A stretch of DNA of 64,000 bases from Hirudinaria manillensis (lineage: Eukaryota; Annelida; Clitellata; Hirudinida; Hirudinidae): positions 2,210,642-2,274,641 of the forward strand of contig CM067532.1 of NCBI GenBank assembly GCA_034509925.1, written 5' to 3'. The stretch's first letter is position 1. Each line of letters begins with the position of its first letter. Of the stretch, positions 9,153 to 19,259 are shown one piece after another. The position numbers were made by a program, and so were the translations under genes. The notes below the pieces were generated by a model, which saw nothing but the letters and a program-made list of their open reading frames with translations, was not told the DNA's origin and did not search any database.

Positions 9153-12100
9153 TTAACCATCTGTCTGTAAGTTCTTGGACAGGAAGTGGACTCACACAAG
9201 TGCACGGCAAAGAGTTGTTTCTCGTCTTAATAGAAATAATATTCATTTAATTGATTTTAATTACTAGAGTTTTTTTATATTTTTAAATTGAGCAGGACAT
9301 TCGAAGACCATTGATGGTATTCAAGGTATGAATGATAGGTATTAAAGATTTGAAATTTTTCTGATTTGTTGCTGTTGTTGTTGCTGCTATTGTTGTTGTT
9401 GTTGTTATTTTATTTGAGCACCAACACTCACCAAACGATTGCTGTTGTAGCATTTGTTGCAGGACTGTAGATCAATAAATAATTACTTAAACGTGGCTTT
9501 TACAGTGGTAGCCCATTTTATTCTTCATACCAAAAGTCAACAATCAAAATCTTTCATTTTTATATATTTAATATAATATATTATTTTATTCCTAAACTGA
9601 TAGAAAAACAAATAGATAAACAAATAGAAGTGGCATAGCATTACTACTAACAACAATAGCAAAAGTAAACAGCATTGAAAATAGTGGCAAAAGTAATGAT
9701 AACCAATGACAATCACATAGCCCACAATATCACCTCAAAATTGATTAATTAATTAATAATTATAAATAAAATAATGATAATCATAATAATGCTGACCTGA
9801 TTTCTGTAACCACCAGCGGAATATTCACTGCAAGAGTCGTAACTTTCTCCAGATTTTTCAGTACTCGGTGTTGACTAAAACGATATTCAATTTCCTAATT
9901 TTGTCAAATAATATATTTATTAAAAGTAAAAATAATTGGAACTAATTATCAATCACCACATCGCTAATCACAACGCAGTCACCATTGATTGAACCAATGA
10001 GATACAATGAAAAATGGTCGCCACCAGCTCCTATGTCAGGCGTCATCAAGGAAGGAAAATCATTCTTGCCGGCTGAGAACTTCAGATCTCTCATCGTTCG
10101 ACTCAAAGTTGCATCAAGTTGAGCGCATAAACCACGTCAAATCCTGATAAACTTTGATCAGCTAAACACAAATGACAGCCCTCAAGACTTAATAGGAGCT
10201 GCGGGTAATTCTTCCGACAAGAACTTCTGCCATTCCTTTGGATAGTGTCCCTCGATATATCTGTCTGTTCTTCTTACAAGAACCTTTTGCGTTCCTGGCT
10301 GAGCGTCTCTTTGTTCTTCTGGTCCTAGGACCCTAGTTGTCCCCTAAGGACTCTGACGGTAAAGCAGGGCGACCGGTCTTTCTTTGACAGTGCACCCATG
10401 GAACACCCCTCCCTCAGTAGGTTCGTCTGACGCACTCAAACCAAAAACTGAAAACTTACTTGTTCGCACGAGAGTACTGAATTATTTTAGACCCGTATTT
10501 CGTTGTTTTCGTCATGTATTTTATTTGTTTACTTTTCTTTTATCAAATAATTTATCTATTTTATATATTTTTTTCATAATAATAATAATAATTATTATTA
10601 TTATTATTGATATTAATATTATTATTATTATCTTGATTTCCTGCTCTGATGTCTGTCTGCGGTCTGTCTCGTCTGCCTATTACATCCTCTTGCAATAGAA
10701 TGCGCACTTTAAAAATCGGTTAAATAAATGTAAATGTAATTGGAAATGAAACAAACAAATATGTGAATAAATAAATTAATTGAGTAACATTAAATTAATT
10801 AATTAATTAATTAAAAATAATAAAATTAATAATTAATAAAATAATAAAAATTAATTCAAATTTACTGGACTTAATTCCGTTCGTCTGCCCCATTTGGAAT
10901 TCTTTCTTTTCGCCGAGCGCCTTCGACCATTTGGGAGCTGATAAATATATAATATAATATAATATAATATAATATAATATAATATAATATAATATAATAT
11001 AATATAATATAATATAATATAATATAATATAATATAATATAATATAATATAATATAATATAATATAATATAATATAATATAATATAATATAATATAATTA
11101 CACTATGCATATAAATAATATATATTATAATTTCCCGCTCGGCATCTCTAATATGTAATATATTTAATAATGTAATAAATAATAATTGTTACTATAATTG
11201 TGATAAATAATAATTTTGCAATAGCTCCATTGTCTTGGATTTTAAGATTAGTCGAGTTTGGGTTAGACTTAGTATAGGGTCACTTTCTTTGATTTTGCTT
11301 TTCACTGTAGCTAATGTAAATGTATATTAATTTAATTTTAATTACCACTGTACAGCAAGCGGGCAAGCAATTGTTGCACATGGAACAAGTTGCACAGGGA
11401 TACAACGGATAGTCCTTCGAATATTAATTGAATTTAAACCAATTAAATAATTAAATTAACTCAATTGTAATTTAAAATTAAAATATATTTAAAATTATTA
11501 ATATTATATTCGTATTTTAAATATTTTAAATATTCGAACTTGAAATTAACATTGGAATTAATAAATAATATGATAAATTCAAAGCCGCCTAATGAAAGCA
11601 AGTCAAAGGTCAAAAAGTAAAAAGGTTAAAAATATTAACTCTCACAGGCACGCAGCAAGACCCGCACATTGGGTAGCAGATTATAGACTTTAAAAATAAA
11701 TCAATTACAAATTATTCTGTTATGAAATAATTCCATTTAAATATTATTTAAATAAATAAATTAAATTATATAAATTTTAAAACATTTAAATGCTTTTTGT
11801 TAAAATATTTTGACATTTTTAAACATTCAAGTTGTTCGTTACACTTTTATCATAATAAAATAATTAATTTAATTAAAATTAATTAATTAATTAAAATTGA
11901 TTTGAATTTATTAAAAACAAAAGGACTTTCTGATAAATTACAATTCAACTATTATCAACCTTTGATTTTGCTCTAGATTTATGTTTTCGCTTATACTAGG
12001 AATGACCAATCTTCTGATGAAATAATTTTAAAATTGAAAATTAATAATAATTAAATAATTAATAACGATTCTATAAGTTTAAAAAATCTCTCTTTAATAT

Positions 12101-18100: not shown

Positions 18101-19259
18101 ATGTATGTAGAATGATTTGAATGAAATTCTTGCTCTGATAAGAGTTCTTAAATTAAGGTTACTTTTTTTTTCTTATTATATCCTCAGCAAGGTCATAGGT
18201 CATTTTGAATAGCAACAGTTCCCAAAGTTCAAGTTATTTATGTACTGTAAATAAAATGCAAGTATAAATAGAAAACACTTCAGATAACGCCGAGGAAAAC
18301 AATGATTGTATTATAATATTTAAGTTTAGAAATTGATAAAAGAACATTAGCTGTTTAAATATGGGAAATGCATTTTAGCAGACCAAGTGTTTTTCCCAAA
18401 CAGTTGCTAAAATATCTAATTTAATAAATAATTTGAATTATGTTTACAGATACATCTGATTGTATTTTTTTATCATTATCCGAAATATGAATTAGGTCTT
18501 CTCATTTCAAGGATGTTTATTTAAATAAGGCGTGATAGTGATATCATTTACATATTTCTCAACATCACATATGATTACAAATAATATTTTAATTAATGGT
18601 CCGATATTCCATTTGCAATGACGACCTACTAAATAATAAATAATAAATAAATAAATTAATAAATTCAATTCATTTCTTTTAGGTATAAACTTTATCAAGT
18701 CGTTCTATCGATCAAAATCGTGACTGGCGACCAATCATAATATTCAAAATAATAATTTGAATGTGTTAAATAATACAGCTTCGAGGGTTAGCACAGTAAC
18801 TATTGTCGTTTCGAGGTAACTGAAATTCTTGTTCGGTTCGGACTGAACTCGATATCACCAGCTTGGAGATTGAATGGCAGCCTATCGAAAATGCCGGGCC
18901 CGTTGCGCATAGTAATGTCATTCATTACATGATATTGTTTTCAAGTCCAGTTCAGCATAAGTAGGATCGAAGGTCATAAGAGTGATTTACTAAGGAAAAA
19001 TTTCCAATGAAACATGTCCTCTCTGATTGCTAACTTAGAAATTTCATGACTACGGATGGTTCTCATTCGGTTGCTGACTTATGGAATGAAAAGGGATTTG
19101 ATTCATCATGAGATATTCAGATGTTACCATGGTATTATTAATTTTTGTCCAGATTTGCTTCATTCATGGATGCCTGGTCAGAAAGCAAGGTTACTTGAAA
19201 TTTCTTGACTTGTATAACCAAACTGTTGAGATGCAATGCTCGAAATGACTTGGTCGCAC
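9153..19259 (-). CDS. microexon gene: 18 symmetric phase-0 exons of 12-78 nt (5' end not found)
   Basis: Exons in transcript order: 19224-19259 (VRPSHFEHCIST), 16863-16937 (starts NNHWNEANDCWCAPS), 15855-15884 (VHNLNSYPEN), 15622-15645 (PWQPNHYE), 15162-15182 (QRAFPTE), 14874-14933 (starts QQYYPMNSNPHR), 14627-14653 (DMTPNYWKQ), 14395-14448 (PNYHNPLPAVYPYPIPKP), 13925-13948 (AHHRNVRK), 13167-13205 (DHLIPVAYREEYS), 12805-12831 (DSDSQESQT), 12576-12620 (GPDDNASIDNYKPRR), 11646-11687 (SIICYPMCGSCCVP), 11349-11414 (starts DYPLYPCATCSMC), 9797-9874 (starts STPSTEKSGESYDSCSEY), 9432-9464 (SCNKCYNSNRL), 9196-9225 (TRNNSLPCTC), 9153-9164 (TDG, stop). Each is bounded by AG and GT, most donors match GTRAGN, and every length is a multiple of three (723 nt in total). 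Minus-strand AATAAA signals follow the stop at 9107-9088. The product is Tyr/Pro/Asn-rich, then acidic, then Cys-rich with CxxC motifs. I recognise no homologue. The architecture resembles schistosome micro-exon genes and aphid bicycle genes. A signal peptide is expected but not identified. Membership of 19224-19259 and the weak donor of 12805-12831 are the least certain points. Confidence 0.7.
9493..9522 (-). other. candidate extra microexon (30 nt)
   Basis: Between GAAG and GTTTAAG the minus strand reads NKMGYHCKSH in phase 0, so it fits the neighbouring exons in phase, size and Cys content. Both splice sites are weaker than those of the accepted exons. Confidence 0.4.
9972..10079 (-). other. 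candidate larger exon of the microexon gene, or unrelated ORF
   Basis: The minus strand is open here (FSAGKNDFPSLMTPDIGAGG and onward). CTGAAG precedes it and several GT sites lie in its 3' part; GTGATT at 9971 gives 108 nt in phase 0. Composition differs from the surrounding microexons (hydrophobic, Gly-rich), so it may instead belong to the mobile-element-like sequence beside it. Confidence 0.25.
10140..10740 (+). mobile_element. possible LINE 3' end remnant
   Basis: This stretch is more GC-rich than its surroundings up to about 10480. It then passes through T-rich and AAT/ATT repeats to a tail ending TTAAATAAATGTAAATGTAA (about 10720-10739), which is typical of the 3' ends of jockey/CR1-like elements. 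No reverse transcriptase or endonuclease sequence could be read. It lies inside a large intron of the minus-strand microexon gene. Confidence 0.3.
10945..11098. repeat. (TATAA)n pentamer array
   Basis: About 30 near-perfect copies of a 5-bp unit, AATAT/TATAA. It lies in an intron of the microexon gene. Confidence 0.95.
13346..13360 (-). other. candidate 15-nt microexon
   Basis: On the minus strand AAATAAG precedes and GTTACG follows five codons reading TSSDY, in phase 0. It would fit between exons 13925-13948 and 13167-13205, but the donor is poor. Confidence 0.25.
13757..13840. repeat. (TTA)n trinucleotide array
   Basis: Long run of TTA/ATT units with one phase slip near 13789. It is intronic in the microexon gene. 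Similar shorter arrays recur through the window, for example 2160-2196, 3717-3770, 24549-24580 and 49029-49045. Confidence 0.9.
17535..17588 (-). other. weak candidate first coding exon of the microexon gene
   Basis: An ATG at 17588 opens 18 codons beginning MIALSIEIFVLKCSHN and reaches a possible donor (GTTGGA) in phase 0, upstream of exon 16863-16937. The start is hydrophobic but contains Glu and is a poor signal peptide. If real, exon 19224-19259 would not belong to this transcript. Confidence 0.15.
17740..17926. repeat. (AATC)n tetranucleotide array
   Basis: About 46 copies with one C-for-A interruption (ACTC) near 17791, ending in a poly-A run. The reverse-complementary unit (GATT)n forms another long array at 20629-20854, so the two lie in inverted orientation 2.7 kb apart. 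Confidence 0.95.

What the first reader, a model, noticed from the sequence alone, without database searches (positions are those of the whole stretch)
9153..19259. Undescribed-looking microexon gene made of symmetric phase-0 exons
Eighteen candidate exons of 12-78 nt on the minus strand each have an AG acceptor and a GT donor. All are multiples of three in phase 0, and they join without a stop until TAA at 9153. Neighbouring exons share a distinctive composition (Tyr/Pro/Asn/His, then acidic, then CxxC-rich). Any exon could be skipped without shifting the frame, as in schistosome micro-exon genes and aphid bicycle genes, which make variable secreted effectors. Caution: once the pattern was seen I looked for phase-0 exons, so there is selection bias, and the first exon is missing.
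Basis: partly seen in the sequence, partly recalled or inferred. Interest (0 to 1): 0.9.

Follow-up and report, generated by a model that had tools for sequence, protein, structure and literature searches.

The report
Many-microexon orphan gene in an annelid
An annelid chromosome, probably a leech's, carries what looks like a real gene cut into about seventeen very short coding pieces that nearly all end on whole codons, so that most pieces could be left out without garbling the rest; no relatives were found, and its product and use are unproven.

Summary
The observation largely holds. On the minus strand, 16937-9151, 17 short GC-rich islands (21-78 nt, 48% G+C) sit between AT-rich introns (22%), each with AG/GT borders and open in phase 0. 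A test blind to frame and codons still picked lengths divisible by three in 12 of 14 cases outside a GC-rich insert, against 65/54/62 elsewhere. Codon usage beats 1000 of 1000 dinucleotide shuffles. Some cruder or stricter scans did not rank the region first.

Corrections: the 19259 exon is weak; a 12-nt last exon ending at 9153 would need a 31-nt intron, and the frame runs to TAA 9141-9139 or splices to 8524-8480; one junction (12831/12620) may be phase 1; 18921-18859 is a better, tentative first exon.

The genome is an annelid's, probably a leech's. No relatives found. It fails tested features of MEG and bicycle genes; phase-0 introns match vertebrate SCPP genes in architecture only. Best reading: a lineage-restricted gene for a disordered Pro/Asn/Tyr/Ser-rich protein with a cysteine cluster, modular by exon skipping or exon turnover. 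Secretion and alternative splicing are inferred.

The parts
18859..18921 (-). tentative first coding exon, 63 nt, ATG...GT, phase 0 (MTLLCATGPAFSIGCHSISKL), weakly signal-peptide-like
   Evidence: best of the ATG-to-donor phase-0 candidates (18-200 nt) in 16938-20380: score 11.0, next 0.9; background 0.42 such per 3.44 kb at score >=10, 0.11 with similar hydrophobicity
16863..16937 (-). exon, 75 nt, phase 0, Asn/His/Trp-rich
15855..15884 (-). exon, 30 nt, phase 0
   Evidence: frame-blind picks at thresholds 6 and 7 but not 8
15622..15645 (-). exon, 24 nt, phase 0
15162..15182 (-). exon, 21 nt, phase 0
   Evidence: codon score slightly better in phase 1
14874..14933 (-). exon, 60 nt, phase 0, Pro/Tyr-rich with PPPY
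   Evidence: codon score better in a frame of the opposite strand
14627..14653 (-). exon, 27 nt, phase 0
14395..14448 (-). exon, 54 nt, phase 0, Pro/Tyr/Asn-rich
   Evidence: codon score better in a frame of the opposite strand
13925..13948 (-). exon, 24 nt, phase 0
   Evidence: codon score slightly better in phase 1
13167..13205 (-). exon, 39 nt, phase 0
12801..12831 (-). exon, 31 nt with the better donor (gtagct) or 27 nt (to 12805, donor gtcggt): the junction that may break the phase-0 rule; acidic/Ser
12576..12620 (-). exon, 45 nt (phase 0), or 38 nt from 12613 if the preceding intron is phase 1
11646..11687 (-). exon, 42 nt, phase 0, Cys-rich
   Evidence: the frame-blind scan chose another acceptor for it, 11716
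11349..11414 (-). exon, 66 nt, phase 0, 6 Cys in 22 residues
   Evidence: codon score slightly better in another phase; the scan preferred the next donor, 69 nt
10866..10937 (-). exon, 72 nt, phase 0, basic
   Evidence: codon score better in another phase
9797..9874 (-). exon, 78 nt, phase 0, Ser/acidic
   Evidence: the frame-blind scan chose a shorter 31-nt version from 9827 at thresholds 6 and 7 and none at 8
9432..9464 (-). exon, 33 nt, phase 0
   Evidence: frame-blind picks at thresholds 6 and 7 but not 8
9151..9225 (-). exon, 75 nt to donor gtttgt (or 30 nt, to 9196, with donor gtgagt; or terminal, open to TAA 9141-9139)
8783..8869 (-). possible further exon, 87 nt, phase 0, good donor but poor acceptor (-5.2)
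8480..8524 (-). possible true last exon, ESSRRSKHKVIVIE then TGA, strong acceptor (5.9)
   Evidence: an AATAAA lies at 8408 but 9 such words occur in 9150-8300, so this is not decisive
9960..10530 (.). GC-rich insert in the intron between exons 10937 and 9874; its two frame-blind picks are closed in phase 0; a 73-base part has a second, 78% identical copy on the same contig

Best explanation
This is a genuine, apparently single-copy, lineage-restricted protein-coding gene of an annelid (probably a leech), built from at least 17 microexons whose introns are all or nearly all phase 0. It codes for a mostly disordered protein: a Pro/Asn/Tyr/His-rich part, a short acidic part, a cysteine cluster and a basic/Ser-rich tail. 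Each 3n phase-0 exon is a cassette that can be dropped, added or duplicated without frameshift. I think the most likely product is an extracellular (gland, cuticle, cocoon or matrix) protein whose length and composition vary by cassette exons, between isoforms or over evolutionary time. Shown by sequence: island exons, splice borders, 3n lengths, phase-0 openness, codon bias. Inferred: transcription, disorder, secretion, exon skipping, tissue.
For: Exon G+C 0.477 against intron 0.224. Frame-blind length bias, 12 of 14 picks outside the insert. First of 3744 rows at thresholds 8 and 10 and still first with 5 more stretches at threshold 8. Codon usage above all 1000 open dinucleotide shuffles. 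Composition P 13.6%, N 10.2%, S 9.5%, Y 7.2%, C 6.4%, F 0.8%, I 1.9%, as expected of a disordered protein (general knowledge; no disorder predictor was run). Candidate first exon with a moderately hydrophobic start. Annelid: 8 matches to Eryth_link_C, 7 over its cut-off, 0 of 14 control genomes; 63 antistasin matches, 0 of 14 controls, point to a leech (the link to leeches is recalled). A vertebrate precedent for the phase-0 cassette logic is stated in PMC6732285 (passages).
Against: No transcript seen. The first exon is tentative and its signal-peptide character weak. One junction may be phase 1. 4 of 17 exons have better codon scores in another phase and 2 more on the opposite strand. Unconstrained gene models gave mixed phases. 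Greedy, genome-wide-background and high-threshold scans did not put the region first by score. No homologue found, so no conservation test.
Confidence: 0.5

Rival explanations
1. The gene is real and phase 0, but its exons are spliced constitutively: the same-phase structure is a relic of growth by exon duplication and loss in a fast-evolving structural or matrix protein (as in vertebrate SCPP genes), not a device for making isoforms. (It overlaps with the evolutionary half of the best explanation, so the odds do not add up to one.)
For: SCPP genes have virtually only phase-0 introns, explained there by harmless exon duplication and deletion as well as splicing (PMC6732285, passages). Three exons share a PN-Y-like motif (PNHYE, PNYWK, PNYHN; read, not tested), which may hint at duplication.
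Against: The exon-order composition test is not significant (P = 0.12). Not otherwise distinguishable from DNA alone.
Confidence: 0.3
2. The microexon tract codes for a disordered cytoplasmic or membrane-bound protein (scaffold or receptor tail) rather than a secreted one: PPPY motif, cysteine cluster for lipid or metal attachment, basic stretch.
For: PPPY in exon 14933, 10 Cys in 36 residues in the two middle exons and RRRSAKRK in exon 10937. The predicted first exon is only weakly signal-peptide-like.
Against: Motif meanings are recalled and such motifs occur by chance. No domain is found in Pfam and no transmembrane exon was assigned.
Confidence: 0.2
3. The pattern is mostly selection by the eye: GC-rich islands with AG and GT borders in very AT-rich DNA, or a decaying pseudogene.
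For: A simple test gave nothing and alternative frames fit several exons.
Against: The frame-blind test still gives 12 of 14 lengths 3n outside the insert and all 12 open in phase 0. The chance that all 17 stay open in phase 0 on shuffling is about 1e-5 (this figure does not correct for the exons having been chosen open). Codon usage exceeds open shuffles.
Confidence: 0.06

Closest known systems
Vertebrate SCPP genes (caseins, ameloblastin, enamel and salivary proteins)
   Same: Introns virtually all phase 0 (PMC6732285 passages; PMC7807025 passage). Short exons and disordered, often Pro/Gln-rich products (recalled); here Pro-rich. Even there exceptions occur: mammalian amelotin gained a phase-1 intron (PMC4373244 passage).
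   Different: Vertebrate family; no sequence relation found. A cysteine cluster and high Asn/Tyr are not SCPP hallmarks (recalled). An architectural parallel only.
Schistosome micro-exon genes (MEG)
   Same: Many tiny, mostly 3n exons (6-81 bp, a few not 3n; PMC10526429 passages) separated by much longer introns; few sequence motifs.
   Different: About 80% of MEG coding is exons of 6-36 bp (PMC5825161 passage) and most are 15 bp; here 7 of 17 exons are 36 nt or less, 186 of 792 nt, and the shortest is 21. MEG signal peptide constant; here not established. Different phylum.
Aphid bicycle genes
   Same: About 17 exons on average, unusually small internal exons, nearly all in one phase, few sequence relatives (PMC9168663 passages and abstract start).
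   Different: Bicycle internal exons are phase 2; here phase 0.

Membership tests
Schistosome MEG | mostly 3n microexons, 6-81 bp | tested here: met
   17 of 17 exons are 21-78 nt and 3n if 12831 takes its weaker donor; 16 of 17 otherwise; definition from PMC10526429
Schistosome MEG | about 80% of coding in exons of 6-36 bp | tested here: not met
   7 of 17 exons, 186 of 792 nt (lengths); definition from PMC5825161
Schistosome MEG | N-terminal signal peptide | tested here: inconclusive
   tentative first exon MTLLCATGPAFSIGCHSISKL, peak hydrophobicity 1.53; no signal-peptide predictor run
Schistosome MEG | isoforms by exon skipping | not testable with these tools
   no RNA data
Aphid bicycle gene | almost all internal exons phase 2 | tested here: not met
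   phase 0 is the best chain at this place (14 exons against 11 in the class next best here); definition from PMC9168663
Aphid bicycle gene | many small internal exons, about 17 per gene | tested here: met
   17 exons; definition
Vertebrate SCPP | virtually all introns phase 0 | tested here: met
   in my model 15 of 16 junctions between the 17 exons are phase 0; the sixteenth (12831/12620) is open; definition from PMC6732285
Vertebrate SCPP | vertebrate lineage and sequence descent | tested here: not met
   annelid genome; no Pfam or protein match

The most novel reading that the evidence does not exclude
An annelid (leech) has independently evolved a microexon system: one gene with 17 to 20 phase-0 cassettes that is spliced combinatorially into a large set of secreted disordered proteins, convergent in logic with schistosome MEGs, bicycle genes and SCPP genes but unrelated to all of them.
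Probability: 0.28. Interest if true: 0.75.

Novelty: new variant of a known kind. Interest (0 to 1): 0.52.

Why it matters
[quoted passage not shown] A phase-0 case in an annelid would be another independent origin and would let one ask whether the architecture itself drives rapid protein turnover. Ordinary annotation can miss such genes, so a class of annelid proteins could be hidden. If the animal is a blood-feeding leech the product might be in saliva, but nothing here shows that.

Tried and rejected
Greedy splice-matrix test with a generic animal matrix: no enrichment. Scan with genome-wide trinucleotide background: region not first by score. Local-background scan at thresholds 12 and 14: second and fifth by score. 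Unconstrained home-made gene model: recovers many of the exons but mixes frames, joins neighbours and is not trustworthy as a gene model. Hydrophobic ORF 20576-20453 on the minus strand as a membrane exon: rejected; the same stretch scores 45.4 as part of an acidic plus-strand exon against 14.5. The ORF beginning at 18910 (MRNGPG...) as first exon: its usable donor is not phase 0. Candidate exon at 12013: closed in phase 0, score -7.7. A weak Cys-driven match at C10:8866686 with two stops was not followed. Weak PDB matches (E 0.74 and worse) taken as chance. Rfam: no match in the window at gathering scores. Literature: (listings only) showed nothing on microexon genes in leeches or annelids; that library lacks most subscription journals. 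PMC13367325 (passages) says nothing of intron phase. Structure prediction was not run: the rules of that tool admit only proteins read straight from the DNA, and this one is spliced. One search was an empty script.

The protein collection probably holds mainly proteins called without introns; that is my inference. A control query from the window, a RING/PHD protein in one exon, found two relatives at 49-51% identity among 653 candidates, so some related animal is represented, but the absence of a spliced gene there says little.
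Full report
What was checked. The window lies in a 148.4-Mb animal genome of 23 contigs. I re-read the minus strand from 20400 to 9000 and from 9200 to 6800. I wrote down 17 exons between 16937 and the last stop: 75, 30, 24, 21, 60, 27, 54, 24, 39, 31 (or 27), 45, 42, 66, 72, 78, 33 and 87 nt, the last counted to its in-frame stop, or 75 nt to the next donor. Their G+C is 0.477 against 0.224 in the 16 introns between them.

Is it more than chance? First, candidate exons were picked by splice-site scores and base composition only, without frame or codons. 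In 9100-17000 minus this gives lengths mod 3 of 14/1/1 at threshold 8, 12/1/0 at 9 and 10, 9/1/0 at 11 and 12; the rest of the sample, that is the rest of the window and 19 usable 10-kb stretches of the same genome on both strands, gives 65/54/62 at 8 and 49/43/47 at 9. At threshold 8 two of the 16 picks lie in a GC-rich insert at 9960-10530 and are closed in phase 0. Of the other 14, 12 are 3n and all 12 are open in phase 0. For 12 of 14 the binomial chance at one third is 8e-5. The two that are not 3n are the exon at 12831 with its 31-nt donor and the exon at 11687 taken from another acceptor.

Second, a frame-aware scan over every strand, phase and length class (local background; rows overlap) put this strand, phase 0, 3n, first of 3744 rows at thresholds 8 and 10 (at 8: 14 exons; mean 1.29, sd 1.46). 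At 12 and 14 it was second and fifth by score, though no row had more exons. The next best class at this place is the same strand in another phase, with 11 exons; I did not check how far these are the same exons. With five more stretches, at threshold 8, it stays first (72.5). The runner-up, L036 plus strand, is close in score (68.5 with 9 exons in the same class) and has 10 exons in a class that is not 3n, which would fit an ordinary gene with mixed phases. At the target the classes of non-3n length hold 2 to 6 exons.

Third, codon usage learned from 25 hand-picked long ORFs (5461 codons) gives 66.5 bits over the 17 exons in phase 0; none of 1000 dinucleotide shuffles and one of 1000 mononucleotide shuffles, all kept open in phase 0, reach that. 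All 17 exons score above zero in phase 0, and the other five frames carry 4 to 16 stops.

Results against. The first test with a generic splice matrix found no bias. With a genome-wide codon background the region was not first by score. In 4 of 17 exons another phase of the same strand scores better than phase 0, and in 2 more a frame of the opposite strand does. A gene model without the phase-0 rule recovers many of the exons but reads several in other frames. The claim that neighbouring exons share composition is visible by eye but not significant (P = 0.12).

Corrections to the finding. The exon at 19259 is weak: codon score -0.3 in phase 0 and 65 nt to its donor. In the frame of exon 9225 the stop is TAA at 9141-9139. 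The gene may go on: from 9225-9151 (donor gtttgt) or 9225-9196 (donor gtgagt) to 8524-8480, a strong acceptor followed by ESSRRSKHKVIVIE and TGA. An AATAAA lies at 8408, but there are 9 such words in 9150-8300. Between them 8869-8783 is an open 87-nt stretch with a poor acceptor. The exon at 12831 has a better donor at 31 nt than at 27, and the next exon has a better acceptor 7 nt further on; 31 + 38 = 69 nt keeps the frame with one phase-1 intron. So 'every exon can be skipped' may have an exception. For the 5' end the best candidate is 18921-18859, MTLLCATGPAFSIGCHSISKL, which scores 11.0 with the next at 0.9; it looks only weakly like a signal peptide and is tentative.

What it codes for. 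Over the 17 exons (264 residues): Pro 13.6%, Asn 10.2%, Ser 9.5%, Tyr 7.2%, Cys 6.4%, with Phe 0.8%, Ile 1.9% and Val 2.7%. The first seven exons (97 residues) hold 22 Pro, 14 Asn and 9 Tyr; the two middle exons hold 10 Cys in 36 residues. This is the make-up of a disordered protein with a cysteine cluster (judged from composition; no predictor run). Pfam has nothing, the protein collection nothing at E<=10 in two searches (54 and 166 candidates), the PDB only weak matches (E 0.74 and worse). In the own genome only the exons themselves match, apart from one match with E 3.45 and one with E 0.008 and two stops. These searches reach short exons badly: one search found 8 of the query's own 17 exons. 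A divergent family cannot be excluded.

Whose genome. The annelid haemoglobin-linker domain PF16915 has 8 matches here, 7 over its cut-off, and none in 14 control genomes; that it is an annelid mark is recalled. The species is not established.

How it most likely works. In a gene of 3n phase-0 exons any exon can be lost, gained or skipped without touching the frame. In the SCPP gene AMBN exactly this is given as the reason why exon duplication, deletion and alternative splicing do not shift the frame (PMC6732285, passages). I take the same logic here: a fast-evolving disordered protein assembled from cassettes, more likely extracellular than not. Whether cassettes are skipped in the living animal or only turn over in evolution cannot be told from DNA.

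Relation to known kinds. It does not meet the bicycle mark of phase-2 internal exons (PMC9168663, passages). It does not meet the schistosome MEG description of about 80% coding in 6-36-bp exons (PMC5825161, passage), though it meets the wider 6-81-bp description (PMC10526429, passages). It shares intron phase with SCPP genes but not lineage or any sequence found. It is best called an independent case of same-phase microexon architecture. Searches of the paper library for leech or annelid microexon genes (listings only) showed none.

Confidence. That a real gene with mostly phase-0 microexons lies here: about 0.9. That it is secreted: about 0.5. That it is used combinatorially: about 0.3.

Noticed in passing
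window 24038-38507 (-): Tandem array of similar genes, each with a PAN-like exon (about 26192-26595, 31895-32296, 38106-38483) and an F5/8 type C-like exon (about 24732-24971, 31298-31409, 37510-37621); Pfam matches of the two exons that gave any are below the curated cut-offs; identity between copies not measured.
   Followed up: partly
window 5685-6881 (+) and 39388-40167 (+): Two RING + PHD open frames on either side of the array; the first has two relatives at 49-51% identity in the protein collection, with no other hits at E<=0.001.
   Followed up: partly
window 35281-36573 (-): Fragment with a reverse-transcriptase zinc-binding domain (PF13966) inside the gene array, GC-rich: retroelement remnant.
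   Followed up: no
window 20389-22772 (+): Probable plus-strand gene with a strongly acidic exon (score 45.4) and a later exon with a membrane-spanning-like stretch; possible divergent neighbour of the microexon gene.
   Followed up: partly
window 42064-48230 (+): Several exons that look alike around a Cys (KCIVPTLKEF, KCVIPKLYQL, KCILPMLNHLF), possibly a repeated secreted domain.
   Followed up: no
window 56930-58060 (-): Large open frame of a rhodopsin-type receptor (PF00001, over its cut-off), best-scoring solved structures galanin and neurotensin receptors.
   Followed up: partly
window 10947-11122: A 176-nt array of a 5-nt A/T unit ends 9 nt before exon 10937 and fills much of the 411-nt intron before it; its length could vary between animals and affect inclusion of that exon.
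   Followed up: no
window 20022-20044 (-): Short run of TTAGGG-type telomere repeats (about three units) inside the chromosome.
   Followed up: no
window 17738-17926 and 20626-20854: Two long arrays of a 4-nt repeat (ATCA/GATT type) upstream of the gene.
   Followed up: no
G000:C7:4151430-4151503: 78% identical partial copy (query 419-491 of 571) of the GC-rich insert found in the intron at 9960-10530.
   Followed up: no
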